Part shown: positions 624-63,759 of the stretch, in pieces
Numbering within the stretch: position 1 is the first letter of the stretch
Layout: every line of letters starts with the position of its first letter
Assembly: GCF_001427985.1 (NCBI RefSeq)
Contig: NZ_LMSA01000003.1
Coordinates: 1-64,000 of the forward strand
Direction of reading: 5' to 3'
Origin: Knoellia sp. Soil729
Lineage (GTDB): Bacteria > Actinomycetota > Actinomycetes > Actinomycetales > Dermatophilaceae
Length of the DNA: 64,000 nt
Made by a program: the position numbers and the translations under genes
The notes under the pieces: model-generated
What the model saw: the letters and a program-made list of their open reading frames with translations, nothing else
Told to the model about the DNA's origin: nothing
Database searches by the model: none

Positions 624-1847
624 ATGCTTCGTTGGTTGACCGCAGGTGAGTCGCACGGCCCTGCCCTCCTGGCCACGATCGACGGCCTTCCAGCCGGCGT
701 CGAGGTGACTCGCGCGGATGTCGCCGAGGCACTGGCCCGTCGCCGGTTGGGCTATGGGCGAGGCGCTCGGATGAAGTTCGAGCAGGATGAGGTCGAGTTC
801 CTCGGCGGCGTCCGGCACGGGCTGACGATGGGGTCGCCCGTCGCGATCCGCATCGGCAACACGGAGTGGCCCAAGTGGCAGACCGTCATGTCGGCCGACC
901 CCGTCTCGGACGAGGCCTACGCCGCGTCCAACGACGTCAACGCCGACAAGGAGATCGCCCGCAACCGACCGCTGACTCGCCCCCGTCCGGGGCACGCGGA
1001 CCTCGTCGGGATGCAGAAGTACGGCTTCGACGATGCGCGCCCGGTGCTCGAACGCGCCTCCGCCCGCGAGACCGCCGCCCGGGTGGCGCTCGGTGAGGTC
1101 GCCTCGCGCTTCCTCGAGCAGGCCTACGGGATCCGGCTGGTGTCGCACACCGTGTCGATGGGCGGGGCCGGTGTCGCCGACGACGCGCCGTTGCCGACCC
1201 CCGACCAGGTCGCCGAGATCGACGCCAACCCGGTCCGGACCCTCGATGCGGACGGCGCGGCCGCGATGGTGGCCGAGGTCGAGGCCGCCAAGAAGGACGG
1301 CGACACCCTCGGCGGGGTCGTCGAGGTCGTCGCCTACGGACTGCCGCCTGGCCTGGGCTCGCACGTGCACTGGGACCGTCGCCTGGACGCGCGGCTCGCC
1401 GGAGCCCTCATGGGCATCCAGGCCATCAAGGGGGTCGAGGTCGGGGACGGCTTCCGCACGGCAGCCCGCCGGGGGTCGGCGGCGCACGACGAGATGGAGC
1501 GCGACGACTCGGGCACCATCCGACGCCGGACCGGACGCGCCGGCGGCACCGAGGGCGGCATGTCCAACGGCGACGTGCTGCGCGTGCGCGCCGCGATGAA
1601 GCCCATCTCCACCGTCCCGCGTGCCCTCGACACCATTGACACGACGGGTGAGGCGGAGGCCAAGGCCATCCACCAGCGCTCGGACGTGACCGCCGTGCCC
1701 GCAGCCGGGGTCGTCGCCGAGGCCATGGTCGCCCTCGTCCTGGCCGAGGCCTGCCTGGAGAAGTTCGGCGGCGACTCGGTCGAGGAGACGCGACGCAACC
1801 ACGCGGCATACCTTGCCGCCATCCCCGGGACGATGCGCTCATGGTGA
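624..1847 (+). CDS. aroC: Chorismate synthase
   Basis: Chorismate synthase turns 5-enolpyruvylshikimate-3-phosphate into chorismate, the last shikimate-pathway step, using reduced FMN without net redox change. The 407-residue product begins [15 protein letters not shown], which contains the GESHG signature, and carries RPGHADL and the arginine-rich [13 protein letters not shown] segment that builds the flavin and substrate pocket. Length is normal for the family. The ATG at 624 follows a strong GGAGG site at 611-615. The stop overlaps the aroK start by 7 bp, so aroC-aroK-aroB should be one transcript with coupled translation. The chorismate it makes is the substrate of trpE, found at 50157 in the same window. 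Confidence 0.97.
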
Positions 1848-2368
1848 CCACGGAGCAGGCGCGCCCGGCCGTCGTCCTCGTCGGCCCGCCCGGGGCAGGC
1901 AAGACGACCATCGGGCAGGCCCTCGCCGCGGCGCTGGGGGTGGACTTCCACGACACCGACACGGCGATCGAGGCAGACCAGGGGTGCTCGATCTCGGACA
2001 TCTTCGTCCTCCAGGGGGAGCCGGCCTTCCGCGCCCTCGAGCGGGCCGAGGTGGCTCGTGCCCTCAGTGCCGAACGTGGCGTCGTCGCCCTCGGCGGCGG
2101 CGCCCCGATGGATCCCGAGACCCGGGGAGTCCTCGAGGACCACGTCGTCGTGTTCCTCGACGTCGCCATCGCGGACTCAGCCAAGCGCGTGGGCTTCGAC
2201 GGGAGCCGGCCGCTGCTCGCCATCAACCCACGCGCCTCCTGGACCAAGCTCATGAACGAACGCCGGCCGACCTACGAGTCCGTCGCGACGCACCGCGTCG
2301 ACACGGCGGGGCGCGCCGTCGCCGACATCGTCGAGGAGATCGTCGGACGCCTGCAGGCTTCCCGATGA
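1841..2368 (+). CDS. aroK: Shikimate kinase
   Basis: ATP-dependent phosphorylation of shikimate at the 3-hydroxyl, cytoplasmic. The 175-residue protein has a P-loop GPPGAGKT at residues 15-22, the DTD segment just after it, and a GGG motif near residue 80 (LGGGAPM) that in the family binds shikimate. The LID arginine is in the [12 protein letters not shown] stretch. The start ATG lies inside the end of aroC and its stop forms ATGA with aroB, so both junctions are overlapping. Domain content and length are those of a monofunctional AroK. Confidence 0.96.
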
Positions 2369-3429
2369 GCGTGGTCTCCGTCGGTGGCGACTACGACGTC
2401 GTCATCGAGGCTGGGTGCTCGTCACGGGTCGCCGGCCTCGTCGGTGAGGGCGTGCAGCGTGCGCTCGTCGTCCATCCCGAGTCGATGCGCGCCCTGGGAG
2501 AGCAGGTCGCAACCTCCCTGCGGGACAGGGACATCGAGGCGTATGCCGTGTGCGTTCCTGACGCCGAGAACGCCAAGACCGCGGCCGTCGCGGCCGACCT
2601 GTGGGCCCTGCTCGGCCAGCACGGCTTCACCCGCACCGATGTCGTCGTCGGGGTCGGGGGAGGGACCGTGACCGACCTCGCGGGCTTCGTCGCCGCCACC
2701 TGGCTGCGCGGGGTCCCGGTGATCCAGGTGCCCACCACGCTGCTCGGCATGGTCGACGCTGCCGTTGGCGGCAAGACCGGCATCAACACCGCCGAGGGCA
2801 AGAACCTCGTTGGCTCGTTCCACCCGCCGCGCGCCGTACTGTGCGATGTCGACGTGCTGGCGACCCTGCCGCGGGCGGACTATGTCGCCGGCATGGCCGA
2901 GATCGTCAAGGCCGGCTTCATCGTCGACCCCGTCATCCTCGACCTCGTCGCGGCGGACCCCGAGGCAGCCACCCGACCCGATGGCCCGCACACCCTCGAG
3001 CTCATCGAGCGCGCGATCGTCGTCAAGGCCGACGTGGTGAGCCAGGACCTCAAGGAGTCCTCGCTGCGCGAGATCCTCAACTACGGGCACACGTTCGCCC
3101 ACGCCATCGAGCACGTGGAGCACTACCAGCGCCGCCACGGTGAGGCGGTCGCGATCGGCATGGTCTTCGCAGCCGAGCTGGCCTGTGCGGCAGGCATACT
3201 CGCACGCGAAGGCGTCGACCTCCACCGATCCGTGTTGCAGTCCGTGGGCCTTCCCACGTCCTACGAGCCCGGCCGGTGGCAGGAGCTCGAGACGGCGATG
3301 CGCCGCGACAAGAAGACCCGCGGCTCGCTGCTGCGCTTCGTCGTCCTCGAGGACCTCGCCCGACCCGTGCGGCTGGAAGGCCCCACGGACGAGCAGCTGC
3401 ACACGGCATACGTCGCAGTGAGCCGCTGA
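2365..3429 (+). CDS. aroB: 3-dehydroquinate synthase
   Basis: Converts DAHP to 3-dehydroquinate, the second shikimate step, using NAD and a divalent metal. The 354-residue product has the NAD-binding GGGTVTDLAGF segment, the VPTTLLGMVDAAVGGKTGIN signature region and the metal-ligand region that includes EIVKAGF and NYGHTFAHAIEH. The start ATG at 2365 shares ATGA with the aroK stop. A longer upstream reading is open in the same frame but would lie on top of aroK, so I reject it. In many relatives aroQ follows; here the next gene is on the opposite strand, and dehydroquinate dehydratase is not in the window. Confidence 0.96.
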   Translation: MSVVSVGGDYDVVIEAGCSSRVAGLVGEGVQRALVVHPESMRALGEQVATSLRDRDIEAYAVCVPDAENAKTAAVAADLWALLGQHGFTRTDVVVGVGGGTVTDLAGFVAATWLRGVPVIQVPTTLLGMVDAAVGGKTGINTAEGKNLVGSFHPPRAVLCDVDVLATLPRADYVAGMAEIVKAGFIVDPVILDLVAADPEAATRPDGPHTLELIERAIVVKADVVSQDLKESSLREILNYGHTFAHAIEHVEHYQRRHGEAVAIGMVFAAELACAAGILAREGVDLHRSVLQSVGLPTSYEPGRWQELETAMRRDKKTRGSLLRFVVLEDLARPVRLEGPTDEQLHTAYVAVSR

Positions 3430-9126: not shown

Positions 9127-10523
9127 TTCTTGGCCTTGTCAAAGGCTGCCTGGGCCTCCTTCTGGGCCTGGTCGAGCGCTGCCTGGGCTGACTGTCCACC
9201 CAGGGCCCGCCCCACGGCCGCCTTCCAGGCTGCGTCGATCTGTGCGCCGGCAGCCGATGCAGGCATCGCCTTCGCCGTGTCGAGGGTGTCGTAGAAGGCC
9301 TGGATGGCCTGCTCGAAGCCCGGCTTCGGCGCCGGCTCCTTGTAGGTCTCGCGGATCTTCTCGTCAGCCACCTTGTTGGCGGTGAAGAGCCCGGTGAAGA
9401 AGCTCTTGTCCGCCTTGGTCTTCGCGATGCGGGCTTCGGCGGCCTTCATCCACGTGTCCGTCGCCGTCATCTCGGCGGCCCAGGCGCAGGCAGCCGTCGG
9501 GTTCTTGGCGCCCTTGGGGATGGCCCAGGCCGAACCGCCCAGGGTGCTCACCGGGTTGCCCTGCCGGTCGGTGATCGGCTGCGCCGCGAGCTGCAAGCCG
9601 GCAGGGATCGAGTCGCGCAGCACGTTGACGTACCAGTTCTCCATCGGGAAGGCGGTGATCGTGCCCGTGGTCAGCGGGTTCTTGTCGCCGAAGATGTCGA
9701 AGGAGTCGCGGAAGGCCTTGAAGCTCGTCCAGCCGCCCTGGGCCTCGACCAGCGTGATCGCGTAGTCCAGCGCCTCGACCGCCTTGGGGTCGTTGAGGTT
9801 CGGGGCGCCACCGTCCTTGACGATCTGCGCGCCGTTGATCAATGCCCACAGGGGGAACGAGTCGGGGAGCTTGGGGTCGAAGCCGACCCGCTTGATCTTC
9901 GAGCCGTTGCTCTCGTAGAGCGAGGTGGCGGTGGACTTGAGGGCGGGCCAGTCCTTGGTCTGGATCTTCGAGGGATCGATCCCCTTGGACTTCAGCGTCT
10001 TGGCGTCGATGAGGTTGACCTGGACGACGTAGAACTCCGGGATGCCGTAGAGCTTGCCGTCGAGGGTGAGCGAGTTGATCGCCGCCTCCCGGTAGGCGCT
10101 CGTGTCGACCTTGCGTGCCTTGACGCAGTCGGTGAGCGGCACGACGGCACCCTGGGCGGCATACGTCCCGATGATGGCCCGGTCGACGTAGACGAGGTCG
10201 GGTGGGTTCCCCGCAGCGAGAGCGGTGAGGAACTGCTGGGCGTCGAACTCGCCCTTGGGGTGCGAGACCTTCACCGACGGGTGGGCCTTGGTGAAGGCGT
10301 CGACGCGAGCCTGCGCCACCTCGTCCTCGCCGCCGAAGCCCATGATGGTCAGGTTGCCGCTCGGGTCGCCGGCGAAGCTGTTGCCGCCGTCGCCTCCGGA
10401 CGAGCCGCTGCCGGAGGCCTCCTCACCCTTGCCTCCGACGCCGGCGCAGCCGCTGAGTGCCACCGCGGCGCTCAGTCCAGCCGCAGTGAGAGCGATCCTG
10501 GTTCGGTTCCGCGTGGTCCCCAT
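9123..10523 (-). CDS. Extracellular solute-binding lipoprotein, sugar ABC importer
   Basis: A 466-residue family 1 (CUT1) binding protein. A signal peptide with basic start (MGTTRNRTRIAL) leads to the lipobox LSGC, making Cys26 the lipidated residue. A Gly/Ser-rich tether of about 25 residues follows, then the mature two-lobe domain (DAFTKAHPSVKVSH, NPPDLVYVDRA, GKLYGIPEF, GGSAWAIPKGAKNPTAACAWA). The final 60 residues are alanine-rich and helical. First gene of the three-gene importer operon; RBS GAGGAG lies 9 bases before the ATG. Typical ligands of the family are oligosaccharides or glycosides, but the actual ligand is unknown. Confidence 0.9.
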   Translation of the reverse strand: MGTTRNRTRIALTAAGLSAAVALSGCAGVGGKGEEASGSGSSGGDGGNSFAGDPSGNLTIMGFGGEDEVAQARVDAFTKAHPSVKVSHPKGEFDAQQFLTALAAGNPPDLVYVDRAIIGTYAAQGAVVPLTDCVKARKVDTSAYREAAINSLTLDGKLYGIPEFYVVQVNLIDAKTLKSKGIDPSKIQTKDWPALKSTATSLYESNGSKIKRVGFDPKLPDSFPLWALINGAQIVKDGGAPNLNDPKAVEALDYAITLVEAQGGWTSFKAFRDSFDIFGDKNPLTTGTITAFPMENWYVNVLRDSIPAGLQLAAQPITDRQGNPVSTLGGSAWAIPKGAKNPTAACAWAAEMTATDTWMKAAEARIAKTKADKSFFTGLFTANKVADEKIRETYKEPAPKPGFEQAIQAFYDTLDTAKAMPASAAGAQIDAAWKAAVGRALGGQSAQAALDQAQKEAQAAFDKAKK

Positions 10524-13657: not shown

Positions 13658-13753
13658 GCCACGCAGTCTGCCGTGCCCGGCTCTCGTTCGGTGGAAACCC
13701 GGTATGCCGTGACGGGAGAGCGTGCGCCACCTCGCCTCGACCGGGTCGAGACC

Positions 13754-14462: not shown

Positions 14463-14601
14463 AGCCGGTGGATTCGGGCGGGCGCGCCTTCGCGGATAGA
14501 CTCCCGACGAATCTTTTGCACCAGACGTCCGTGACTGTCCGCGCTCCGTGCGCAGGCGGCATACCGGATCCTTGAAAATTTCTCCTTGAAAGTGATGACA
14601 C

Positions 14602-15591: not shown

Positions 15592-16091
15592 TGACCGACG
15601 TCCGGCTCGCCACGGCCGCCGACCTGCCCGGGTTGGCGGCCGTCGAGGCATCGGGGGACACGTTGTTCGAGACGGTCTTCGACGAGGTCCACTGGCCACC
15701 GCCGCCCTCCGGCAAGGAGCGAGCGGCCGAGCCCGGGTTCCTGCTCGTGACCGGCGAGCCCGTGGTGGGGTTCGCTCACGTCCTCGAGCTGGGTGGTGGG
15801 TGGCATCTCGAACAGCTCGTGGTCGACCCTGCCCACGGTCGGCGTGGTCTGGGCACCAGTCTCGTCGATGGCGTATGCCGGGAGGTCACTCTGCGTGGTG
15901 GCCGGGAGGTCACGTTGCGCACGTTTGCGGACGTGCCCTGGAACGCGCCGTTCTATGAGCGTCAGGGGTTCGTCGAGCTGGAGGCGGAGCCGGACTGGAT
16001 GGCGCCGCTGCGCGCAGCCGAGGAGCGGATCGGGCTGACGCGACTGGGGCGTCGCATCGCCATGGTGCGGACGTCGGCCCCGCTGGTCTGA
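15591..16091 (+). CDS. GNAT family N-acetyltransferase
   Basis: A 166-residue acetyl-CoA dependent acyltransferase. The acetyl-CoA binding motif A is LVVDPAHGRRGLGTSLVDG (R/Q-x-x-G-x-G/A form), and motif B is the DVPWNAPFYERQGFVEL segment. The N-terminal ~30 residues (RLATAADLPGLAAVE) form the usual first strand and helix. No substrate can be read. The start is TGATG-coupled to nusB. Gene content between nusB and pyrR varies in relatives, so this looks like an accessory addition. Confidence 0.88.
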   Translation: MTDVRLATAADLPGLAAVEASGDTLFETVFDEVHWPPPPSGKERAAEPGFLLVTGEPVVGFAHVLELGGGWHLEQLVVDPAHGRRGLGTSLVDGVCREVTLRGGREVTLRTFADVPWNAPFYERQGFVELEAEPDWMAPLRAAEERIGLTRLGRRIAMVRTSAPLV

Positions 16092-17641: not shown

Positions 17642-17645
17642 CGAC

Positions 17646-22586: not shown

Positions 22587-25899
<3,313 letters not shown>

Positions 25900-39244: not shown

Positions 39245-39321
39245 GGGGTTGGAGGGGTGGGGGACGTCACGGTGAGACGGCCTTCGGCTCGCGGGGTCGC
39301 TGCGGCATACTGGGTGGTGAC

Positions 39322-43904: not shown

Positions 43905-44750
43905 ATGCTGCGCATTGCCGTCCCCAACAAGGGATCCCTCGCCGAGCCCGCCGCCGAGATGCTGCGCGAGGCGGGCTACCGCACGCGCCGCGACGCCAAG
44001 GAGCTCGTCGTCAACGACGAGGCCAACGGGGTCGAGCTGTTCTACCTCCGACCACGTGACATCGCCGTCTATGTCGGGTCGGGCACCGTCGACTGCGGCA
44101 TCACCGGTCGTGACCTGCTCCTCGACTCCGGCAGTGCTGCCACCGAGGCGATGACGCTCGGCTTCGGGGGCTCGACCTTCCGGTATGCCGGCCGGCCGGG
44201 AACCGTGTCCGCGGTCGCGGACATTGCCGGTCGCCGTGTGGCCACGAGCTACCAGGGCCTCGTCGAGAAGCACCTGGCCGACCACGGCGTGCAGGCCGAG
44301 GTCGTGCGCCTGGACGGCGCCGTCGAGACGGCGATCACCCTCGGCGTCGCCGACGTCATCGCCGATGTGGTCGAGACGGGCGCCACCCTGCGCAGCCAGG
44401 GGCTCGAGGTGTTCGGGGACCCGATCCTGCGCAGCGAGGCCGTGCTCATCCGCCGGGAGGGGAGCGACCAGGACGCCGGGATCGAGGTGCTGCGGCGCCG
44501 CATGCTCGGTGTCGTCACGGCACGCCACTACGTCATGCTCGACTACGACGTGCCCGCGGCCCTGGTCGACGAGGCCTGTGCGATCACGCCCGGCCTGGAG
44601 TCGCCCACGGTGTCGAGCCTGCAGAACAAGGACTGGAAGGCTGTGCGCGCCATGGTGCCGCGTGCGGTCACCAACCGTGTCATGGACCAGCTCTACGAGA
44701 TGGGCGCTCGAGCCATCCTCGTCACCGACATCGCCGCGTGCCGCCTGTGA
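43905..44750 (+). CDS. hisG: ATP phosphoribosyltransferase, long form
   Basis: First and feedback-regulated step of histidine synthesis, joining ATP and PRPP. The 281-residue length shows the long form with its own regulatory domain, so no HisZ is needed. The catalytic part opens LRIAVPNKGSLAEPAAEMLREAGYR and the PRPP loop is in ADVIADVVETGATLRSQGLEV. The C-terminal ACT-like regulatory domain begins near LDYDVPAALVDEACAITPGLESPTV. GTGA overlap with the PH-domain gene. Confidence 0.95.
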   Translation: MLRIAVPNKGSLAEPAAEMLREAGYRTRRDAKELVVNDEANGVELFYLRPRDIAVYVGSGTVDCGITGRDLLLDSGSAATEAMTLGFGGSTFRYAGRPGTVSAVADIAGRRVATSYQGLVEKHLADHGVQAEVVRLDGAVETAITLGVADVIADVVETGATLRSQGLEVFGDPILRSEAVLIRREGSDQDAGIEVLRRRMLGVVTARHYVMLDYDVPAALVDEACAITPGLESPTVSSLQNKDWKAVRAMVPRAVTNRVMDQLYEMGARAILVTDIAACRL

Positions 44751-47149: not shown

Positions 47150-48307
47150 CTAGGACGGGTCGGCGGGTCCCAGCTCGTCGCCGTCCCCATCGCGCACCGA
47201 GGCCGGCACATAGCTGCCCGCCTCATCGAGCGGAAGCCCCGTCAGGACGAGGAGGTCGACGACCATCGACCGGACCTGGGCGCGCATGACCTCGCCGGAC
47301 AGGCCGGAGCTGGGGTCGATGGCCGCGCTGCGCTCGCCGAGCCGCTGCAGGCCGGCACGGGCCGACACGGGCTGGTGGCGCTCGTGCAGCTCCCGGGCGA
47401 TGTCGTCGCACGACTGCGCGAGGTCCTGGACGAGGTCGACGTAGGCCGGAGGCACCACCTCATGGCGGCGAGCACCGACGCTGGCCCGGCGCACGAGCAC
47501 CCGCAGGTTGCGGATCGTGCGGTCCAGCGGCTCGAGCAGGTCCGCGATGGCCTGGGCGCCGGGGAGGTGACGGCGCCTGAAGGGTGACAGCCGCACGACC
47601 GCGACACCCTCGGAGGTGAGGTTCCGCAGCTCGTCGAGCATCGACTCGGACGCCCGCGCCCGCTCCAGGGTGCGAGCCGCCAGCGCCGTGTCCCCCGTGC
47701 GGATCACTGTGGCGCTCTCGCGCAGGATCGCCGAGATCTCCTCGACGACCCGGGCGGCCTGTTGCCGTGGGCGCTGCAGCCCGGTGGCCGGGACGAGGAC
47801 GCCGATGACGAGCGCGACGCTCCCGCCGATGACCGCGTCGAGCCAGCGCGTGAAGGCCTGCCCGGGGGCAGCCACGAGCGTGGTGATGATGGCTGCCTGG
47901 ACGCCGGCCTGGATCGTCAGCACGAGTCCGGCCCCGACGAGGGAGGCGATGGCCATGGCGACCATGACCACGAAGAGGAGCTGCAGCACGCCGCTGCCGA
48001 ACACGTGCGAGAACAGGTCACCGATGAGGACACCGAGGGCCACCCCGATCATCACCTCGACGGCCCGCCGCACCCGCTGCCCGTAGGACATGCCCAGCGT
48101 GATGATGGCAGTGACCGGGGCGAAGAACGGCATCGCATGGGCGAAGAGGTCGCGCGCCGCCCACCACGCGAGCGCCGCGCCGAACCCGCACTGGACGATG
48201 AAGGCGAGGCGCGAGCCGAGGCGGTCGGTGCGGATCCGGGCCTCGGACCGGGAGCGCGCGGCGACCCGTGCGGGCAGGTCGGAGGCGGACGGCATACGGG
48301 GCATCAT
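47150..48307 (-). CDS. FUSC family membrane protein
   Basis: A 385-residue protein related to aromatic acid exporters and YccS/FUSC proteins. About six membrane segments fill residues 30-180 (FIVQCGFGAALAWWAARDLF, APVTAIITLGMSYGQRVRR, VMIGVALGVLIGDLF and so on). A C-terminal cytoplasmic helical part of ~200 residues follows (ILRESATVIRTGDTALAARTLERA). GMSYGQRVRRAVEVMIGVALG resembles the conserved G-x-x-x-G-Q-R loop. The substrate is unknown. It is divergent from hisF with only 23 bp between starts and is followed by the kinase-MFS gene after 10 bp, so the two probably form an operon. Confidence 0.82.
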   Translation of the reverse strand: MMPRMPSASDLPARVAARSRSEARIRTDRLGSRLAFIVQCGFGAALAWWAARDLFAHAMPFFAPVTAIITLGMSYGQRVRRAVEVMIGVALGVLIGDLFSHVFGSGVLQLLFVVMVAMAIASLVGAGLVLTIQAGVQAAIITTLVAAPGQAFTRWLDAVIGGSVALVIGVLVPATGLQRPRQQAARVVEEISAILRESATVIRTGDTALAARTLERARASESMLDELRNLTSEGVAVVRLSPFRRRHLPGAQAIADLLEPLDRTIRNLRVLVRRASVGARRHEVVPPAYVDLVQDLAQSCDDIARELHERHQPVSARAGLQRLGERSAAIDPSSGLSGEVMRAQVRSMVVDLLVLTGLPLDEAGSYVPASVRDGDGDELGPADPS

Positions 48308-49104: not shown

Positions 49105-49752
49105 TCAGATCCCGAGACGTGCCGTCTCGAAGCCTGCGATCGCGTCCTCGTCGCCCGTCACCTCGATCTGGGCCACCCCACGACGTCCGTATGCCGTGAG
49201 CAGCAGTTCCAGCGGATCTCCCGACACGTGGACGACGGTGTCGCCCCCGCGCACCGTGAGAGGGGCGCGCCCGGTGCTGTGCAGCTCGACCCCGTCGGGC
49301 GCCTTGCGGAAGAGCAGACGCCCCATCCGGGAGAGCAGCGACCACGTGGCGGCCTCGAGGGCAGGGGAGGGCTCGCGGCGGGGGCCGGGGACGCCGTCGC
49401 CACGCAGCACGTCCTCGTGGTGGACGACCATCTCGGCAAGGTTCACGGCGTCGTCGACGGCGGCGAGCCGGGTGGGGTGCCAGCGCGGCGGGCCAGTGCG
49501 CACGGCCTCGACGAGGTCCGGCCAGGGCTGGGCCGCGACCCTGGACTGCTCGCGCTCGGTGCGGGCGGCCAGGAACGGGAGCCAGATGCCGGAGGCCAGG
49601 TCGGGACGTCCCTCGCGGATCACGAGGTGTGCCGCGAGGTCGCGCGTGGTCCACGGCGTGCAGAGCGTGGGGGCATCCGGTCCGACGCGCTCGAAGGTCG
49701 CGCAGAGGTCGAGACGCTCGGTGCGCGCAATGTTGTCAGAGGTGGCCGTCAT
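49105..49752 (-). CDS. TIGR03085-type metal-binding protein (DinB/MPI-like)
   Basis: A 215-residue protein resembling the mycothiol-dependent maleylpyruvate isomerase/DinB-like superfamily. The N-terminal helix [38 protein letters not shown] holds an H in the metal-site position, and a second pair is [14 protein letters not shown]. The ending [31 protein letters not shown] is the SCP2-like C-terminal part. Many members need mycothiol, which actinobacteria make. The exact reaction is unknown. Convergent with hisF and divergent from hisI. Confidence 0.85.
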
Positions 49753-50160: not shown

Positions 50161-51719
50161 GCGCCCAGCCGCAGCCGTCACCCGACCTGTCGTTCGGCGC
50201 CACCTGGCCCTCGTTGCAGCTCTTCTCGGTTCTGGCCGAGGGGCGCCGGGTCATCCCCGTCACGCGTCGGCTCATGGCCGATGCCGAGACCCCGGTCGGC
50301 CTCTACCGCAAGCTCGCGCAGAACCGGCCGGGCACCTTCCTGCTGGAGTCGGCCGAGCACGGTGGGGTGTGGTCGCGCTACTCGATCATCGGCGTCTCCA
50401 GCCGGGCGACGCTGACCGAGAAGGACGGTGAGGCGCACTGGATCGGCGAGCCACCCGTCGGTGTCCCGACCTCCGGCCCCGCCACCGACGCCCTGCGCGA
50501 CACCGTCGCGGCGCTCGCGACGGACCCCATCCCGGGTCTGCCGCCGCTCACCGGCGGCATGGTCGGCATGATCGCCTACGACGCCGTGCGCCGGTGGGAG
50601 AAGGTTCCGTCGACGACGCCCGACGTGCTGCACCTGCCCGAGATCGCGATGATGCTCGCCACCGACCTCGCCGTGCTCGACCACTCCGACGGGTCGGTCC
50701 TGCTCATCGCCAACGCGGTGAACTACGACGCCACCGACGAGCGTGTCGAGGAGACGTGGGCCGACGCAGTGTCCCGCCTCGACACCATGACCCGTGACCT
50801 CGCCGCCCCGGCCGAGAGCACGGTGTCGGTCGTCGACAGCGATCTCGTCGACCAGGCCATGCGGACGGTCACCGGCAACCTGTCGCGCGACGACTACGAG
50901 GCGATGGTCGAGAGCGCCAAGGAGGACATCCGTGCCGGCGAGGTGTTCCAGGTCGTCCTCTCACAGCGGTTCTCGATGCCCTGCCCCGCGGACGCACTCG
51001 ACGTCTACCGGGCGCTGCGCGTGGGTAACCCCAGCCCCTACATGTACCTCTTCCGGTTCACGCGGCCGGACGGCACGGCATACGACGTCGTCGGCAGCTC
51101 ACCGGAGGCACTCGTCAAGGTGACGGGCACGCAGGCCATCACCCACCCCATCGCCGGGTCGCGACCGCGCGGCAAGTCTCCCGAGGACGACGTGCGCCTC
51201 GCCGAGGACCTCGTGGCCGACCCCAAGGAGCGGTCCGAGCACGTGATGCTCGTCGACCTCGGCCGCAACGACCTCGGACGCGTCTGCCAGCCGGGCACGG
51301 TGGACGTCGTCGAGTTCATGGACGTCCGCCGCTACAGCCACGTCATGCACCTCGAGTCCACGGTTGTGGGGGAGCTGCGTGAGGGGGTGCGTGCCTATGA
51401 CGTGCTCGTGTCGACGTTCCCGGCGGGGACGCTGTCCGGTGCGCCCAAGCCGCGGGCGCTGGCCCTCATCGAGGGCTATGAGCCGTCACGTCGTGGGGTC
51501 TACGGCGGTGTGGTCGGCTACCTCGACTTCCACGGTGATCTCGACATGGCGATCGCCATCCGCACCGCCCTCATCGACGGGGGCCTGGCTCACGTGCAGG
51601 CCGGTGCCGGGATCGTCGCGGACTCCGTCGCGGCCAGCGAGCACGACGAGTGCATCGCCAAGGCCACCGCTGCCCTGCGCGCCGTCGCGACCGCCGCCGC
51701 CCTGCGTACCGCGCGATGA
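50157..51719 (+). CDS. trpE: Anthranilate synthase component I
   Basis: Turns chorismate and ammonia/glutamine into anthranilate; feedback-inhibited by tryptophan. The 520-residue chain has the N-terminal regulatory half with the inhibitor-type segment [19 protein letters not shown] and the chorismate-binding half ([67 protein letters not shown]). The GTG start overlaps hisI. The glutaminase subunit trpG and trpD are not in the window, so the trp genes are split. ATGA with the next gene. Confidence 0.96.
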
Positions 51720-52573: not shown

Positions 52574-53380
52574 ATGACCACGGTGCTCGACGCCATCGTC
52601 GCCGGTGTGCGCGAGGACCTCGCGACGCGCGCCGAGCAGGTCACCCTGCCCGACCTCGAGCGTCGCGTCAGCGAGCTTCCGAGCGCCATCGACGCCGAGG
52701 AGCGGCTGCGCCGCGACGGTCTCTCGCTCATCGCGGAGGTCAAGCGAGCCAGCCCCAGCAAGGGCGCCCTCGCCGACATCCCCGACCCGGCATCCCTGGC
52801 CCGGACCTATGCCGAGGCGGGTGCCACCGCGATCAGCGTCCTCACCGAGCAGCGTCGCTTCGGCGGCAGCCTCGACGACCTCGATGCCGTGCGGGCGGCC
52901 GTGTCGGTCCCGGTGCTGCGCAAGGACTTCATGGTCACCGACTACCAACTGTGGGAGGCGCGAGCCCATGGCGCCGACATCATCCTGCTCATCGTCGCCT
53001 CACTCACCGACGCCGAGCTGCACCGCATGCACGCCCTGGCGCACGAGCTGGGCATGACCGCACTCGTCGAGGTGCACGACGAGGGCGAGACACAGCGCGC
53101 CGTCGACGCCGGCGCCCGGGTCATCGGTGTGAACGCCCGCAACCTCAAGACCCTGGAGATCCACCCCGACACGTTCTCGCGCCTGGTACCCCTCATCCCC
53201 CCGGGTGTGGTCACGGTGGCCGAGTCCGGCATCCGCGGCGCGGAGGACGCAGCCATGTATGCCGCCCAGGGAGCCGATGCCCTCCTCGTCGGCGAGACCC
53301 TCGTGCGCGGAGCCGATCGCACGGCGACGGTGCGCGAGCTCATCGCCGCCGGCTCCACCTCCACGGTGGGCCGGGCATGA
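52574..53380 (+). CDS. trpC: Indole-3-glycerol phosphate synthase
   Basis: Closes the indole ring from CdRP. The 268-residue barrel has [20 protein letters not shown] (the catalytic lysine region), [60 protein letters not shown] and the phosphate loop [11 protein letters not shown]. The ATG at 52574 is 10 bases behind the previous stop. ATGA with trpB; the order trpC-trpB-trpA is standard. Confidence 0.95.
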
Positions 53381-56708: not shown

Positions 56709-57613
56709 TGTTCCCGGCGACGATCCCGAGCCCCACCGCGGGGGTGCTCCACCTGGGGCCCCTGCCCATCCGTGGGTACGCCCTGTGCATCCTGCTCGGG
56801 ATCGTCGTCGCCGTCTGGATCGCCGACCGCCGGCTGCGCGACCGTGGAGGTGAGCCGGGGCAGGTCCTGGACGTCGCGGCATACGCCGTCGTCTCCGGGA
56901 TCATCGGCGGGCGGCTCTACCACGTCATCACCACCCCGGAGCCCTACTGGGGCAAGGACGGGCACCCGCTCAACGCCCTGAAGATCTGGGAGGGCGGGCT
57001 CGGGATCTGGGGTGCTGTCGCGCTCGGCGCGCTCGGTGCGTGGGTCGGGTGCCGGCGGGCCGGTGTGAGATATCTCGACTTCGCCGATGCCGCGGCCCCC
57101 GGCATCGCGGTGGCGCAGGGCATCGGCCGATGGGGGAACTGGTTCAACAACGAGCTCTACGGCGGACCGACCGACCTGCCGTGGGGGCTGGAGATCCACA
57201 CGTGGGACGCGTCTGCGGGGCGCGCCGTGACCGATGCCAACGGTGACGCGATCGTGCAGGGGATCTATCACCCGACCTTCCTCTACGAGTCGCTGTTCGT
57301 CATGCTCCTGGCGGTCGTGCTGCTCCTCATCGAGCGGCAGAGGTCACTGGCACGGGGGCAGCTGTTCGGCCTCTACGTCGCGGGCTACCCGATCGGGCGG
57401 ATCCTCATCGAGAAGATGCGCACCGACGAGGCAGAGCTCATCCTCGGGCAGCGCCTCAACGTGTGGACCAGCATCGTGGTGTTCCTCATCGGGGTGGCGA
57501 TCGTGCTCTACACCGGACACCGCGCCCGGGCGACGCCGACGGACGTGGCCCCCGCCGACGACCCCGCCGCGCCGACCGACTCGGGCGCGTCCACATCGTC
57601 GTCCACGATGTGA
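56708..57613 (+). CDS. lgt: Prolipoprotein diacylglyceryl transferase
   Basis: Adds diacylglycerol to the lipobox cysteine of prolipoproteins, including the binding protein at 9123. The 301-residue membrane protein has about seven helices and the signature IAVAQGIGRWGNWFNNELYGG (the conserved G-R-x-G-N-x-x-N-x-E). PIRGYALCILLGIVVAVW and the ending LFGLYVAGYPIGRILIEKMRTDEAELILG also match. A ~30-residue acidic, proline-rich C-terminal tail follows. TGATG overlap with the DsbA-like gene. A 145-bp gap then leads to gltB. Confidence 0.94.
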   Translation: MFPATIPSPTAGVLHLGPLPIRGYALCILLGIVVAVWIADRRLRDRGGEPGQVLDVAAYAVVSGIIGGRLYHVITTPEPYWGKDGHPLNALKIWEGGLGIWGAVALGALGAWVGCRRAGVRYLDFADAAAPGIAVAQGIGRWGNWFNNELYGGPTDLPWGLEIHTWDASAGRAVTDANGDAIVQGIYHPTFLYESLFVMLLAVVLLLIERQRSLARGQLFGLYVAGYPIGRILIEKMRTDEAELILGQRLNVWTSIVVFLIGVAIVLYTGHRARATPTDVAPADDPAAPTDSGASTSSSTM

Positions 57614-57758: not shown

Positions 57759-60700
57759 GTGTCCCTGACGCGCTTCTCCGCCCATCCGGCCGACACCGGT
57801 CTCTACCGGCGCGACCACGAGCACGATGCCTGTGGCGTGGCCATGGTCGCGACCATGCGCGGCACGCCGGGGCACGACATCGTCGACCACGCCCTCACGG
57901 CACTGCGCAACCTCGACCACCGGGGCGCCACCGGCGCGGACCCGCTCGTCGGTGACGGCGCGGGCATCCTGACGCAGCTCCCCGACGCGTTCTTCCGGGG
58001 CGTGCTCGACGTGCAGCTGCCCGTCGCGGGCTCGTATGCGGCGGGCATGGCCTACCTGCCCCAGGACGAGTCCGAGCGCGCCGCGGCACAGGAGCGGATC
58101 GCGCAGATCGCCTCCGAGGAGGGTCTGGAGATCCTCGCCTGGCGCGACGTCCCCGTGGCCCCCGACCTCGTCGGTGACGCTGCGCGAGCCTGTATGCCGT
58201 TCTTCCGCCAGCTCTTCGTCTCCGCGACCGACCGCTCCGTCTCGGGGATCGAGCTCGACCGGCTCGCGTTCTGCCTGCGCAAGCGTGCGGAGCGGCAGGC
58301 CGAGGTCTACTTCCCGTCGCTGTCGGCTCGCACCATCGTCTACAAGGGCATGCTCACGACCGGACAGCTCGAGCCGTTCTTCCCCGACCTGTCGGACGAG
58401 CGGTTCGCGAGCGAGCTCGCCCTCGTGCACTCGCGCTTCTCGACCAACACCTTCCCGAGCTGGCCGCTGGCCCACCCCTACCGGCTCATGGCGCACAACG
58501 GTGAGATCAACACCGTCAAGGGCAACCGCAACTGGATGCGCGCCCGCGAGAGCCAGCTGGTCTCCGACGTCTTCGGCGGCGACCTCGAGCGGCTCTTCCC
58601 GGTCTGCACCCCCGACGCGTCCGACTCGGCGAGCTTCGACGAGGTCCTCGAGCTCATCCACCTCGGTGGCCGGTCGCTGCCGCACGCGGTCCTCATGATG
58701 ATCCCCGAGGCGTGGGAGAACCACGCGGAGATGGACCCGGCCCGCCGCGCGTTCTACGAGTTCCACTCCACCTTCATGGAGCCGTGGGACGGACCGGCCT
58801 GCGTCGCCTTCACCGACGGCACCCTCATCGGTGCGGTCCTGGACCGCAACGGCCTGCGTCCAGGCCGCTACTGGGTCACCGAGGACGGGCTCGTCGTCCT
58901 CGCCTCCGAGGCGGGCGTGCTCGACATCCCCTCCGAGAAGGTCGTCAAGCGCGGTCGGCTGCAGCCGGGCCGCATGTTCCTCATCGACACCGCTGCCGGT
59001 CGCATCGTCAGCGACGACGAGGTCAAGACGCAGCTCGCCGCCGAGAACCCCTACGAGGAGTGGCTGCACGCCGGCCTGCTCAGCCTCAAGGACCTGCCGG
59101 AGCGGGAGCACATCATCCACACCTCATCGTCGGTGGCGCGCCGGCAGCGCACCTTCGGCTACACCGAGGAGGAGCTCAAGATCCTGCTCGCGCCGATGGC
59201 CCGCACCGGGGGAGAGGCGCTCGGGTCGATGGGCACCGACACGCCGGTGGCCGTGCTGTCCGACAAGCCGCGCCTGCTCTTCGACTACTTCACCCAGCTC
59301 TTCGCGCAGGTGACGAACCCGCCGCTCGACGCGATTCGCGAGGAGCTGGTCACCTCGCTCGGCACGAGCATCGGGCCCGAGGGCAACATGCTCGAGGCGA
59401 CCCCGGTGCACGCCCGCCAGGTCGTCCTGCCCTTCCCGGTCATCGACAACGACGAGCTCGCCAAGATCGTGCACATCAACGCCGACGGCGACCTGCCCGG
59501 CTACGCCACGCACGTGGTGCGCGGCACCTACCTCGTCGCGGACGGCGAGGAGGCGCTGCGCAGCCGCCTGCGCGACATCTGCACCGAGGTCAGCGAGGCG
59601 ATCGCCGCAGGCGCGCGGTTCGTGGTCCTGTCCGACCGGGACTCCGACCGTGACCACGCACCGATCCCGTCGCTGCTGCTCACGTCCGCGGTGCACCACC
59701 ACCTCATCCGAGAGAAGACCCGCAACATGGTGGGCCTCCTCGTCGAGGCCGGTGACGTGCGGGAGGTGCACCACGTCGCCCTGCTCGTCGGCTACGGCGC
59801 CGCGGCGATCAACCCCTACCTCGCCATGGAGACGGTCGAGGACATGGTCCGCACCGGGGCCATCACCGGCGTCACCGCGGAGCAGGCCGTCAAGAACCTC
59901 ATCAAGGCCCTGGGCAAGGGCATTCTCAAGGTGATGTCCAAGATGGGCATCTCAACGGTGGCCTCCTACCGCGGCGCCCAGGTCTTCGAGGCGCTCGGGC
60001 TCTCGCAGGAGCTCGTCGACGAGTACTTCACGGGCACGGTCTCCCAGCTCGGCGGCATCGGGCTCGACGTCCTCGCCGCCGAGACGGCGGCCCGCCACGA
60101 CTCGGCCTACCCCACCGACGGCGTGATCCTGTCCCACCGCAAGCTCAAGATCGGTGGCGAGTACCAGTGGCGGCGCGAGGGTGAGCCCCACCTCTTCGAC
60201 CCCGACACGGTCTTCCGGCTGCAGCACGCGACGCGTGAGCGCCGTTACGACATCTTCAAGCAGTACACCGCGCGCATCGACAACCAGGCCGAACGCCTCA
60301 TGACCCTGCGTGGGCTCTTCGAGCTCGGCGGCCCCGCCCGGCGCGAGCCGATCCCGCTCGACGAGGTCGAGCCCGTGAGCGAGATCGTCAAGCGCTTCAG
60401 CACCGGTGCGATGAGCTATGGCTCGATCAGCCAGGAGGCCCACGAGACCATGGCGGTCGCGATGAACCGCCTGGGTGGCCGATCCAACACGGGCGAGGGC
60501 GGCGAGGACGTGGACCGCCTGCTCGACCCCGAGCGACGCTCGGCGATCAAGCAGGTGGCCTCGGGCCGGTTCGGGGTGACCTCGGCCTACCTCACCCACG
60601 CCGACGACATCCAGATCAAGATGGCCCAGGGCGCCAAGCCCGGTGAGGGCGGCCAGCTGCCCGGCCCCAAGGTCTACCCGTGGGTGGCGCGCACGCGCCA

Positions 60701-62303
60701 CAGCACCCCCGGCGTCGGCCTCATCAGCCCGCCACCGCACCACGACATCTACTCGATCGAGGACCTCGCCCAGCTGATCCACGACCTCAAGAACGCCAAC
60801 CCCCAGGCCCGGATCCACGTCAAGCTGGTGTCCGAGGTCGGTGTCGGGACCGTGGCGGCGGGCGTGTCCAAGGCGCACGCCGACGTCGTCCTCATCTCGG
60901 GTCACGACGGTGGGACCGGCGCCTCGCCGCTCACCTCGCTCAAGCACGCCGGCGGGCCATGGGAGCTTGGGCTCGCCGAGACCCAGCAGACGCTCGTCCT
61001 CAACGGACTGCGCGACCGCATCGTCGTGCAGGTCGACGGCCAGATCAAGACCGGCCGGGACGTCGTCGTCGCGGCGCTGCTCGGAGCCGAGGAGTTCGGC
61101 TTCGCCACGGCGCCGCTCGTGGTGAGCGGCTGCATCCTCATGCGCGTCTGCCACCTCGACACCTGCCCCGTCGGCATCGCGACCCAGAACCCCGAGCTGC
61201 GTGCGCGCTACTCCGGCAAGCCGGAGTTCGTCGAGACGTTCTTCGAGTACATCGCCGAGGAGGTCCGCGAACACCTCGCGTCGCTGGGCTACCGCAGCAT
61301 CGAGGAGGCGATCGGCCAGATCGGCGCCCTCGACACGACCAAGGCGATCAGCCACTGGAAGGCGTCGGGGCTCGACCTCTCGCCGATCCTCACCGAGGTC
61401 GACAGCCCGGACGGGTCCGCCCGCCGCCACACGGTCAGCCAGGACCACGGACTCGAGAAGGCCCTGGACCACCAGCTCATCGCCATCGCCCGAGAGGCCA
61501 TCGACGACGGCATCCCCGTGACCGGGACGGTGGCCATCCGCAACGTCAACCGGACCGTCGGCACGATGCTCGGGCACGAGGTGACCCGGGCGCACGCCGC
61601 CGGGCTGCCCGACGACACGATCGACCTCACCCTGCGTGGGTCGGCCGGCCAGAGCTTCGGCGCCTTCGTGCCCAGGGGAGTGACCCTGCGGCTCGTCGGC
61701 GACGCCAACGACTACGTCGGCAAGGGCCTGTCGGGCGGACGCATCATCGTGGCGCCCGCACCTGATGCACCGCTCGCCGCCGAGGACAACGTCATCGCCG
61801 GCAACGTCATCGGCTACGGCGCGACCTCGGGCGAGATCTTCCTCAGGGGCCGGGTCGGCGAACGCTTCTGCGTGCGCAACTCGGGCATCACCGCCGTCGT
61901 CGAGGGTGTGGGTGACCACGGCCTCGAGTACATGACCGGCGGCACCGTCCTCATCCTCGGGTCGACCGGGCGCAACGTCGCCGCCGGCATGTCCGGTGGC
62001 GTGGCCTACGTCCTCGACCTCGACGCCTCGAGGGTCAACGGGGAGCTGGTTGACGTGTCGCCACTGCGCGACAGCGACAACGACGTCGTGCGCGACCTGC
62101 TTCAGCGCCACCTGGCCCACACGGGATCGGCTGTCGCCTCCCGCCTGCTCGAGAGCTGGGAGTCCGCCCGTGGGCGCTTCTCCCTCGTCCTTCCCCGCGA
62201 CTACCAGCGAGTCCTCGACGTCCGCGCCACCGCCGAGGCCGAGGGCCTCGACCTCGAGGGCGCAGAGGTCTGGGACCGGATCATGGAGGCTTCCCGTGGC
62301 TGA
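57759..62303 (+). CDS. gltB: Glutamate synthase large subunit
   Basis: Makes glutamate from glutamine and 2-oxoglutarate, using electrons from GltD. The 1514-residue chain has the N-terminal nucleophile Cys25 ([11 protein letters not shown]), exposed after removal of a ~24-residue propeptide, the amidotransferase domain, the central domain, the FMN barrel ([39 protein letters not shown]) and the 3Fe-4S ligands [13 protein letters not shown]. The GXGXG C-terminal helix-like domain ([17 protein letters not shown]) completes it. The largest gene of the window. GTG start at 57759; the preceding 145 bp contain TAACAT (57649-57654) as a possible -10. Overlaps gltD by 8 bp. Confidence 0.97.
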
Positions 62304-63759
62304 CCCCCAAGGCTTTCTCAAGACCCGCGAGCGTGAGCTCCCTGCCCGCCGCCCCGTGCCGGTCCGCATCAAGGACTGGCGCGAGGTCTACGAGGAGCAG
62401 GAGCTCGGACAGCTGCAGCGCCAGGCCGGCCGGTGCATGGACTGCGGCATCCCGTTCTGCCACAGCGGCTGCCCGCTGGGCAACCTCATCCCCGAGTGGA
62501 ACGACCTCGCCTGGAAGGGCGACTGGAAGTCCGCGATCGAGCGCCTGCACGCGACCAACAACTTCCCGGAGTTCACCGGCCGCCTGTGCCCGGCTCCCTG
62601 TGAGACGGCGTGCGTCCTGGGCATCAACCAGCCCGCCGTGACGATCAAGCAGGTCGAGGTGACCACCATCGAGAAGGCCTTCGCCGACGGTGGTGTCACG
62701 CCCCGCCCGCCGGAGCGCCTCTCCGGCAAGACGGTCGCCGTCGTGGGCTCCGGACCGGCTGGCCTCGCTGCGGCGCAGCAGCTGACCCGCGCCGGCCACA
62801 CGGTCGCGGTCTACGAGCGTGCGGACCGCCCCGGTGGCCTGCTGCGCTACGGCATCCCCGAGTTCAAGATGGAGAAGTCGGTCGTGGACCGTCGCCTCCA
62901 GCAGATGCAGGCCGAGGGCACGCGCTTCCGCAGCTCGGTCGACGTCGGCGCGGACGTCACCTGGGAGCAGCTGCGCGCCCGCTACGACGCCGTGGTCATC
63001 GCCATGGGCGCCACGGTGGCCCGTGACCTCGACGTACCCGGGCGGCGCGACGCCTCGGGCGTGCTCCAGGCCATGGACTTCCTCCCGCCCGCCAACCGGG
63101 CTGCGCTCGGCGAGACCGTCGACGGGCAGGTCACGGCCCAGGGCAAGGACGTCATCGTCATCGGCGGTGGCGACACCGGGGCGGACTGCATCGGCACCTC
63201 GCACCGACAGGGCGCCAGGTCCGTCACGAGCCTCGAGATTCTGCCCCAGCCGGGGGAGGAGCGTGCCCCGGGCCAGCCCTGGCCGACCTACCCGATGACC
63301 TTCCGGGTCGCCTCCGCCCACGAGGAGGGCGGCGACCGCCTGTATGCCGTGAGCACCCAGGAGGTCGTCACCGACGCCGAGGGCCGGGTGAGCGGCCTGC
63401 GGGTCCACGAGGTCCGTCGTGTCGAGAACGGCTTCGAGCCGGTCGAGGCGACCGAGAAGGTCATCCCCGCCCAGCTGGTGCTGCTGGCCATGGGCTTCCT
63501 CGGCCCTCAGACCGAGACCCTCGTGGCCCAGCTGGGCGTCGAGCTCGACGAGCGGTCCAACGTCCGCCGTGGCGCCGACTACATGTCGTCGGTCCCCGGC
63601 GTCTTCGTCGCCGGCGACGCCGGTCGTGGCCAGTCACTCATCGTGTGGGCCATCGCGGAGGGTCGCGCCGCGGCCCACCACGTCGACGCCTGGCTCTCGG
63701 GCAAGCCCTCCCGCCTGCCCCGACCGGTCAACCCGACCGACCGCCCTCTCACGGTGTGA
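62296..63759 (+). CDS. gltD: Glutamate synthase small subunit
   Basis: NAD(P)H-dependent flavoprotein that supplies electrons to GltB. The 487-residue chain has two 4Fe-4S-type cysteine groups near the N-terminus ([18 protein letters not shown] and [14 protein letters not shown]), the FAD loop [17 protein letters not shown], and the NAD(P) loop [16 protein letters not shown]. The C-terminal [25 protein letters not shown] closes the FAD site. The GTG start at 62296 is inside the end of gltB with a GGAGG site upstream. Canonical length. Confidence 0.96.

What the first reader, a model, noticed from the sequence alone, without database searches (positions are those of the whole stretch)
1804..63349. 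A short octamer (CGGCATAC/GTATGCCG) is strongly over-used on both strands
I count 33 copies in 64 kb, 17 in one orientation and 16 in the other. For independent bases at about 70 percent GC I would expect roughly 2-3 (my own estimate). The copies fall in unrelated genes and in gaps, and they read in different codon frames: Ala-Tyr (GCA TAC), Tyr-Ala (TAT GCC), Arg-Met-Pro (CGT ATG CCG at 21847 and 24096) and Gly-Ile-Pro with the rare ATA codon (22181). Because rare codons GCA, TAT and ATA are accepted to keep the word, selection or a DNA process seems to act on the nucleotide sequence, not the protein. Possible meanings are a HIP1-like element, a DNA uptake or recombination word, or a methylation site. 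I know of no published description, but cannot search.
Basis: seen in the sequence. Interest (0 to 1): 0.8.

Follow-up and report, generated by a model that had tools for sequence, protein, structure and literature searches.

The report
Probable DNA-uptake word in Knoellia-like actinobacterium
An actinobacterium and many of its relatives carry thousands of copies of one short DNA word, in related 'dialects', which looks like the self-recognition tags that some naturally transformable bacteria use to choose which DNA to take up; such tags were so far known to us only from Gram-negative bacteria.

Summary
The window has 33 copies; dinucleotide shuffles expect 0.64. The 3.6 Mb genome has 2138, the reversed word 89. 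Under a synonymous-shuffle null it ranks first of 20,406 octamers (195 vs 18.8). Copies show no strand preference, are spaced more evenly than random, are denser between genes, and form close inverted pairs just behind genes. 25 of 28 aligned sites are intact in a congener, against 32% of control octamers. An extended motif (A-11, A-1, T+15) surrounds the word. Among the genomes searched it is confined to one family; some genera use one-base dialects, two of which keep the A-11 flank. It is scarce in four mobile inserts. The genome encodes ComEA, ComEC and a Tad/Flp operon that serine-recombinase elements split in relatives. Best reading: a DNA uptake sequence of a Tad-pilus competence system. 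Uptake is untested, no receptor was found, and 12 of 22 word-less genomes keep that operon's tadC. Our literature searches (capped lists) showed no such sequence in actinobacteria.

The parts
1804..1811 (+). word copy
   Evidence: in gene 636-1847+, GCG-GCA-TAC
2541..2548 (-). word copy
   Evidence: in gene 2365-3429+, TAT-GCC
3404..3411 (+). word copy
   Evidence: in gene 2365-3429+, GCA-TAC
10157..10164 (+). word copy
   Evidence: in gene 9123-10463-, TAT-GCC
13702..13709 (-). word copy, intergenic
14557..14564 (+). word copy, intergenic
15873..15880 (-). word copy
   Evidence: in gene 15591-16091+, GTA-TGC-CGG
21847..21854 (-). word copy
   Evidence: CGT-ATG-CCG
22181..22188 (+). word copy with rare ATA codon
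   Evidence: GGC-ATA-CCG
24096..24103 (-). word copy
   Evidence: CGT-ATG-CCG
24666..24673 (+). word copy
   Evidence: GCA-TAC
25431..25438 (+). word copy
   Evidence: GCA-TAC
30398..30405 (-). word copy
   Evidence: TAT-GCC
31640..31647 (+). word copy
   Evidence: GCA-TAC
33851..33858 (-). word copy
   Evidence: TAT-GCC
34123..34130 (+). word copy
   Evidence: GCA-TAC
36109..36116 (-). word copy
   Evidence: TAT-GCC
36551..36558 (+). word copy
   Evidence: GCA-TAC
39303..39310 (+). word copy, intergenic, just before an FMN riboswitch
39764..39771 (+). word copy
   Evidence: GCA-TAC
39855..39862 (-). word copy
   Evidence: TAT-GCC
41788..41795 (-). word copy
   Evidence: TAT-GCC
42140..42147 (+). 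word copy
   Evidence: GCA-TAC
42810..42817 (-). word copy
   Evidence: TAT-GCC
44183..44190 (-). word copy
   Evidence: TAT-GCC
45555..45562 (+). word copy
   Evidence: TAT-GCC in gene 45352-47139-
48290..48297 (+). word copy
   Evidence: CGT-ATG-CCG in gene 47150-48307-
49189..49196 (-). word copy
   Evidence: GCA-TAC in gene 49105-50094-
51076..51083 (+). word copy
   Evidence: GCA-TAC
53257..53264 (-). word copy
   Evidence: TAT-GCC
56877..56884 (+). word copy
   Evidence: GCA-TAC
58192..58199 (-). word copy
   Evidence: TGT-ATG-CCG
63342..63349 (-). word copy
   Evidence: TAT-GCC

Best explanation
CGGCATAC, inside a longer motif with A at -11, A at -1 and T around +15, is the core of a DNA uptake sequence. 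The proposed working: cells make a Tad/Flp-type competence pilus (the seven-gene tad operon on contig C2) that, itself or through a partner such as ComEA, prefers double-stranded DNA carrying the word; ComEA and ComEC bring one strand in; recombination then spreads word-bearing alleles and purges word-less ones. The word therefore accumulates to about one copy per 1.7 kb, is kept at conserved sites, is scarce in mobile DNA, and shifts by single bases (dialects) between genera. Shown here: enrichment, selection at the DNA level, flanking motif, dialects, scarcity in four presumed mobile inserts, and presence of the genes. Inferred: that the cells are naturally competent, that uptake prefers the word, and that this Tad pilus is the apparatus.
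For: Enrichment beyond a codon-aware null. No strand preference: 113+ and 113- on 400 kb whose 363 predicted genes are 236- and 127+. Even spacing: CV 0.774 against 0.963 for random, 0 of 5000 simulations as even, pairs under 60 bp merged. Intergenic density 1.32 per kb against 0.46 in genes on C1. All 14 neighbouring copies under 60 bp apart on C1 are inverted pairs; the 8 of them that are spaced 25-32 bp and lie outside genes all sit 17-32 bp from a predicted gene's 3' end. Site conservation 25 of 28 against 0.317 of 3083 control octamers. Codon-corrected flanks in 283 coding and 91 intergenic copies: A-1 142/62 and 47/16, A-11 79/24 and 40/16, T+15 91/54 and 47/16, seen/expected; the three recur around 379 copies of 21 other sequence sets of the family (57/38, 121/77, 96/65). 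Dialects CGGCATCC, CGTCATAC and CGGCGTAC at whole-genome scale, SCGCATAC and CGGCATTC in samples. A-11 recurs with CGGCATCC (35/20) and CGGCGTAC (31/13) in dialect genera, not in control genomes (31/30; 5/5; 11/14). Words in four presumed mobile inserts: 2 against about 26 expected from flanking DNA. comEC matched in 72 and comEA in 71 of 74 family genomes at E 1e-3. Elements with large serine recombinases border split tadC genes in G121, G027, G056 and G057, as other mobile elements disrupt comYC, comM and comK (PMC4774983, passages). No strong TadC match in 10 of 22 word-less against 2 of 47 word-bearing genomes. In Micrococcus luteus, tad genes are needed for transformation (PMC4322843, passages).
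Against: No experiment shows competence or word-dependent uptake in this family. No receptor was identified: the pilin that first seemed missing from word-less genomes was found there by tblastn. comEC, comEA and TadA-type ATPases occur in word-less genomes too. 12 of 22 word-less genomes keep TadC, and G008, with 2535 word copies, gave no strong TadC match (only 31 of its 41 first-look candidates were scored). The ten word-less genomes without TadC come from seven genera, and the association is not corrected for relatedness. One-mismatch neighbours are mostly not elevated. In dialect genera the picture is less complete: T+15 is not kept with CGGCATCC (24/23) or CGGCGTAC (26/22), A-1 not with CGGCGTAC (20/23); CGTCATAC shows none of the three clearly, SCGCATAC only A-1; and intergenic enrichment is absent in G047, G024, G009 and G055 and slight in G032. 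Scarcity in inserts could also reflect their young age. The M. luteus papers I searched do not mention an uptake sequence.
Confidence: 0.72

Rival explanations
1. A Chi-like recombination word: a helicase-nuclease at DNA ends reads CGGCATAC and switches to recombination, so selection for repair keeps the word frequent.
For: Short, non-palindromic, genome-wide and frequent like Chi; even spacing would help repair.
Against: RecC has no match in this genome and none in 36 of 47 word-bearing family genomes; it is commoner in word-less ones (14 of 22). No strand bias relative to gene orientation. Flanking positions 11 bp upstream and 7-8 bp past the core and scarcity in mobile DNA are not known Chi features (recalled). 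AdnAB and AddAB were not tested.
Confidence: 0.1
2. A binding site of a nucleoid-associated or chromosome-organising protein spread evenly over the chromosome.
For: Even spacing, both strands, conserved sites and an extended flanking motif suggest a protein that reads about 30 bp.
Against: Gives no reason for scarcity in inserted elements other than young age, nor for the Tad association; one-base dialects between genera would need a changing reader.
Confidence: 0.1
3. A methylation or restriction-linked word (HIP1-like): an orphan methyltransferase modifies it and the mark is used in repair or regulation.
For: HIP1 also is an octamer in high copy, linked to orphan methyltransferases (PMC4390886, abstract start in search listing).
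Against: The word is not a palindrome, its information extends beyond 8 bp, and close inverted pairs behind genes are not expected. No methyltransferase search was made.
Confidence: 0.05
4. Mutation bias, codon-pair preference or a dispersed repeat element makes the word common without function.
For: Most coding copies read Ala-Tyr or Tyr-Ala, and CGGCGTAC does exceed the codon null in unrelated Kribbella, Nocardioides and Hamadaea.
Against: Synonymous shuffling gives 18.8 for 195 observed; intergenic copies are denser; 25 of 28 sites conserved against 32%; flanks are shared by coding and intergenic copies.
Confidence: 0.02

Closest known systems
DNA uptake sequence (DUS) of Neisseriaceae and its dialects
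   Same: Thousands of copies, lineage dialects that differ by few bases, two dialects side by side in one genome, family members without any (PMC3630211, abstract and dialect section); atypical DUS distribution in mobile elements (PMC7371117, abstract); inverted pairs as terminators (recalled).
   Different: Different word: the conserved CTG core of DUS dialects is absent. The reverse complement GTATGCCGT shares only ATGCCGT with AT-DUS (10-mer, the two extra bases recalled), probably by chance. The host is an actinobacterium with no PilM match; ComP was not searched.
Uptake signal sequence (USS) of Pasteurellaceae
   Same: Short core with flanking AT-preferring positions (PMC7811141, passages).
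   Different: Unrelated core; AT-preferring positions here lie on both sides of the core (A-11, T+15) and are weaker; organism and pilus type differ.
Flp/Tad-pilus competence of Micrococcus luteus
   Same: Same phylum; tad gene clusters of similar order together with comEA/comEC (PMC4322843, passages).
   Different: No uptake sequence is mentioned in the passages searched; orthology of the tad operons was not tested.
HIP1 of cyanobacteria
   Same: Octamer in high copy.
   Different: HIP1 is a palindrome linked to methyltransferases (listing); this word is not palindromic and is not limited to 8 bp.

Membership tests
DNA uptake sequence (DUS/USS) | Copy number far above a codon-aware expectation across the genome | tested here: met
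   (codon-aware null on 464 kb)
DNA uptake sequence (DUS/USS) | Non-palindromic, equal on both strands | tested here: met
DNA uptake sequence (DUS/USS) | Intergenic enrichment and inverted pairs downstream of genes | tested here: met
   for this genome; not in every dialect genome
DNA uptake sequence (DUS/USS) | Dialects differing by single bases among relatives | tested here: met
DNA uptake sequence (DUS/USS) | Scarce in mobile DNA | tested here: met
   2 copies against about 26 expected, four presumed inserts in relatives only; none tested in this genome
DNA uptake sequence (DUS/USS) | Host encodes DNA uptake machinery | tested here: met
   comEC, comEA, Tad operon:
DNA uptake sequence (DUS/USS) | Presence of the word tracks presence of the uptake pilus | tested here: inconclusive
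   no strong TadC match in 10 of 22 word-less and 2 of 47 word-bearing genomes; not corrected for phylogeny; 12 word-less genomes keep TadC
DNA uptake sequence (DUS/USS) | DNA with the word is taken up better | not testable with these tools
   needs uptake or transformation assays
DNA uptake sequence (DUS/USS) | A surface receptor binds the word | not testable with these tools
   no candidate discriminated word-bearing from word-less genomes
Neisserial DUS proper | Conserved CTG core | tested here: not met
   word and dialects lack it; the feature is from PMC3630211
Chi (RecBCD) | RecBCD present | tested here: not met
   no RecC match in this genome
Chi or FtsK-orienting (KOPS-like) word | Skewed orientation along a replichore | tested here: not met
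   113:113 over 400 kb with 236:127 gene strands; origin and terminus were not mapped
HIP1 | Palindromic octamer | tested here: not met
   sequence itself
HIP1 | Cognate methyltransferase | not tested
   no search made

The most novel reading that the evidence does not exclude
A self-recognition system for natural transformation that arose independently in actinobacteria: a Tad/Flp competence pilus with sequence-specific DNA choice, with lineage dialects that act as mating barriers, and with mobile elements that defend themselves by inserting into tadC.
Probability: 0.6. Interest if true: 0.93.

Novelty: new variant of a known kind. Interest (0 to 1): 0.85.

Why it matters
If true, sequence-specific DNA uptake is not a peculiarity of a few Gram-negative families; it evolved again with another pilus type and another cell envelope. 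That would allow the old question of why uptake sequences exist (drive through uptake bias, or selection for sex with kin) to be asked in an independent case with dozens of genera and several dialects. It would also tell genetic engineers of this family, which includes polyphosphate accumulators of wastewater plants (PMC9123174, abstract start in a search listing), to add the word to donor DNA. Even if uptake is not the function, a family-wide DNA word with dialects, conserved sites and an extended flanking motif must have an unknown reader.

Tried and rejected
Competence genes as the discriminating factor: at E 1e-3 comEC matched in 72 and comEA in 71 of 74 family genomes (7 and 40 of them over the curated cut-offs; the comEC match of G041 is short and weak), so they do not separate word-bearing from word-less genomes. 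Type IVa pili: PilM matched in 4 of 74 and not in this genome. The TadA family TIGR03819 matched in 74 of 74, in 65 over its cut-off, and its list was cut.

Receptor by presence or absence: the seventh gene of the Tad operon seemed absent from word-less G017, G064 and G010, but tblastn found it in all three, weakly in G017. Rejected.

Dialect switch within one genus: 6 of 14 CGGCATAC sites of G032 read CGGCGTAC in G121, none is conserved; control 30 of 638. I first took this as proof of a dialect switch. But CGGCGTAC in the G121 sample's coding sequence is only 23 against 11.6 expected, its Tad operon carries an insert and A-11 is not enriched (1/1), so decay of abandoned sites to the preferred codon GCG is as likely. 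Not counted as support. CGGCGTAC is also enriched in other orders; I accept it as a dialect only for G030, G047 and G055, tested pooled, because of the A-11 flank.

Flank tests that failed: CGTCATAC (52 sites) showed neither A-11 nor A-1 and only 13/8 for T+15; SCGCATAC (34 sites) showed A-1 only; A-12, T+14 and T+17, enriched in Knoellia, were not enriched in the other CGGCATAC genera. Unplanned positions reached z 4.5 in control sets, so z values near 3.5 are modest.

Inverted pairs: of 4 pairs 60-80 bp apart on C1, 3 are direct; G006 has 4 inverted and 2 direct close pairs, and CGGCGTAC in Hamadaea, Kribbella and Nocardioides also gives a few inverted ones.

Literature: the octamer as a string gave 3142 papers, of which 30 were listed, all unrelated by title. 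Searches for an uptake sequence in actinobacteria showed none by title or abstract start, but the lists were capped: 25 of 32, 15 of 205, 7 of 7, 12 of 146, 8 of 26. Most subscription papers and all bioRxiv preprints are outside that library.

Rows dropped or labelled by hand: G022 had no gene models and was not evaluated, 66 of 80 loci were long enough and 61 were used. In the tables the word-bearing (47), word-less (22) and unassigned (5: G118, G119, G120, G123, G124) labels were set by hand; G009, G031, G061 and G121 are the weakest word-bearing calls. Dialect labels on the tree were typed too. Gene models come from my own simple finder, not a published one.


Full report
What was checked. 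The 33 copies are there, 17 and 16 by strand. On 464 kb of the same genome (400 kb of contig C1 and the window) the word is the most over-represented 8-mer under a third-order Markov model (259 against 10.9). Shuffling synonymous codons within each of 425 predicted genes, which keeps every protein and each gene's codon usage, gives 18.8 copies (sd 3.8, largest 27 in 40 runs) where 195 are seen; the word ranks first of 20,406 strand-collapsed octamers, and ranks 2 to 8 overlap it. Genome-wide there are 2138 copies against 89 of the reversed word, one per 1.7 kb.

Where it lies. In 400 kb of C1 the copies are 113 on each strand although 236 of 363 predicted genes point one way. Spacing is more even than random (CV 0.774 against a mean of 0.963, none of 5000 simulations as low; pairs under 60 bp merged). 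Density on C1 is 1.32 per kb between genes and 0.46 in genes. Of 165 copies inside C1 genes, 53 read GCA-TAC (Ala-Tyr), 87 read TAT-GCC (Tyr-Ala), and 1 each is in the frames CGG-CAT and GTA-TGC. All 14 neighbouring copies under 60 bp apart are in opposite orientation; of 4 pairs 60-80 bp apart, 3 are direct. Eight of the 14 are spaced 25-32 bp and lie outside predicted genes, and all eight sit 17-32 bp from a predicted gene's 3' end. Several are long perfect inverted repeats, so they look like terminators; transcription was not tested.

The motif is longer than eight bases. With expectations set for each codon position, 283 coding and 91 intergenic copies share A at -1 (142 seen, 62 expected; 47 and 16), A at -11 (79 and 24; 40 and 16), A at -12, C at -4, and T at +14 to +18 with a peak at +15/+16 (at +15 91 and 54; 47 and 16). 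These copies come from G000 and from 100 kb of congener G006, part of which is homologous to the G000 stretch used, so not all are independent. A-11 and T+15 hold in 66 intergenic copies without a close partner (0.45 and 0.50). Some intergenic G at -20 and -27 is probably the other arm of hairpins. A-11, A-1 and T+15 recur around 379 copies from 21 other sequence sets of the family (57/38, 121/77, 96/65), where G-7 and C-2 are stronger and A-12, T+14 and T+17 are not enriched. In the window 7 of 33 copies have A-11 and 14 have T+15.

Selection. Between this genome and congener G006, in about 41 kb aligned at 82% identity, 25 of 28 word sites are intact against 0.317 of 3083 octamers of the same composition (Fisher 4e-10). 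In the other direction 24 of 36 are intact against 0.305 of 3146, so G006 has gained or this genome has lost about a third. Of 50 copies in 100 kb here, 28 lie in the 41% that aligns (p 0.04).

Who has it. By ComEC the nearest named relative in the list is Knoellia remsis (74%; the tool may leave out the genome itself or one very near), and contigs of identical length name several family members: Intrasporangium oryzae, Humibacillus xanthopallidus, Dermacoccus abyssi, Intrasporangium flavum. The family would be Dermatophilaceae (my inference from these names). All 9 genomes of the genus that were searched carry 1971 to 3277 copies; in the rest of the family 31 of 62 genomes carry at least 939 and the other 31 at most 293; the 46 genomes of other families carry at most 167. 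Among word-poor genera several use a one-base variant. CGGCATCC: G024 3816, G117 3838, G033 3949, G051 2195 (beside 1217 CGGCATAC), G009 1336, the other 69 genomes 241 to 1038. CGGCGTAC: G047 3903, G055 2618, G030 2216, then G121 1463, G031 1359, G061 1125, the rest at most 752. CGTCATAC: 12 of 74 genomes have over 300 (G122 1966, G034 1954, G011 1557 the most); the ten of them whose CGGCATAC was counted have at least 939 of that too. Samples add SCGCATAC in G027 (25 against 3.5 in coding sequence, 3 inverted close pairs) and CGGCATTC in a Phycicoccus MAG (14 against 0.7). The A-11 flank is kept for CGGCATCC (35/20; 5 genomes) and CGGCGTAC (31/13; 3 genomes) and is not enriched around the same octamers in controls (31/30; 5/5; 11/14), while T+15 is not kept in either and A-1 not with CGGCGTAC; CGTCATAC and SCGCATAC lack A-11. 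Intergenic enrichment is clear for G030, G033 and G027 but not for G047, G024, G009 or G055. On a ComEC tree of 32 genomes with 9 unresolved forks, the seven labels need 13 changes (6 would be the least possible, shuffled labels 16.0), so dialects changed or were lost more than once.

Mobile DNA. Four presumed inserts in or beside tadC hold 2 words where flanking DNA predicts about 26: G121 37 kb (2, about 11.6), G027 17 kb (0, about 8.4), G033 5.9 kb (0, about 5), G057 4.5 kb (0, about 1.3) (the expectations are my arithmetic on its counts). Without G121, whose word status is doubtful, it is 0 against about 15. The limits of the inserts are judged from gene content; youth of the inserts could also explain this.

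Machinery. This genome has a comEC match (C4:200655-202313) and a comEA match (C4:202982-203167), no PilM match, and a seven-gene Tad operon at about C2:165697-170270. Pfam supports TadA (T2SSE), TadC (T2SSF), two TadE-like proteins and a TadE/G-like protein; TadB was not scanned and is named by position, and the 69-residue Flp-like protein by position and look only. TadC has a strong match in 62 of 74 family genomes. It is missing in 10 of 22 word-less and 2 of 47 word-bearing genomes (Fisher 8e-5, without correction for relatedness). Of the two, G054 has a tadC fragment beside pilin-like genes (the latter by eye) and G008 may have been missed (31 of 41 candidates scored). In relatives tadC is split: in G121 both parts lie on one contig 37 kb apart, in G027 and G057 on two contigs, in G056 only the 3' fragment was seen; each time a large serine recombinase (Resolvase plus Recombinase domains) is next to the break. 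Elements in comYC, comM and comK disrupt competence in other bacteria (PMC4774983, passages), so this supports, without proving, a role of this Tad pilus in DNA uptake. In M. luteus tad genes are required for transformation (PMC4322843, passages).

Rivals. RecC has no match in this genome, in G006 or in G008, nor in 36 of 47 word-bearing genomes, and orientation is balanced, so a RecBCD-Chi role is unlikely; AdnAB was not tested. A palindromic HIP1-like or simple methylation word does not explain the flanks, but no methylation data exist here. A nucleoid protein remains possible. Mutation or codon bias is contradicted by the intergenic copies, the conservation and the flanks.

Comparison with the known. 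The pattern matches DUS of Neisseriaceae in copy number, dialects, co-occurring dialects in one genome and family members without any (PMC3630211, abstract and dialect section), and resembles the USS of Haemophilus in having AT-preferring flanks around a core (PMC7811141, passages). It looks as if it works like them; it is not a member of neisserial DUS, since the CTG core is absent. Uptake itself was not tested, so 'DNA uptake sequence' remains an inference at about 0.72. The capped lists of searches showed no report of one in actinobacteria.

Noticed in passing
G121 (L232-L233), G027 (L207, L234), G056 (L236), G057 (L237, L238): Elements with large serine recombinases sit at split tadC genes; the G121 insert is about 37 kb and seems by eye to bear a type I restriction gene set. 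It looks like a recurrent insertion hotspot.
   Followed up: partly
G044 (L043, L171, L172): A different word, CCCCTTCG (52 against 6.4 in 60 kb, 25 of them intergenic), is over-used in a genome without a TadC match.
   Followed up: no
L098, L104, L110, L136, L092 (Nocardioides, Kribbella), L120 (Hamadaea): Words of the form CGNCGTAC or CGTACGNN exceed the codon-aware null in other orders of actinobacteria, without the A-11 flank. Possibly another family of words, or codon context.
   Followed up: partly
L074 (Phycicoccus MAG): CGGCATTC, a further one-base variant, is the top octamer (14 against 0.7).
   Followed up: no
   Followed up: no
window 39318-39448: FMN riboswitch aptamer (88.4 bits), with a word copy ending 7 bases before it.
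   Followed up: no
G032 (L225-L228, L067): CGGCGTAC is depleted in coding sequence, 2 against 11.6 expected, as if Ala-Tyr sites had been recruited to CGGCATAC.
   Followed up: partly
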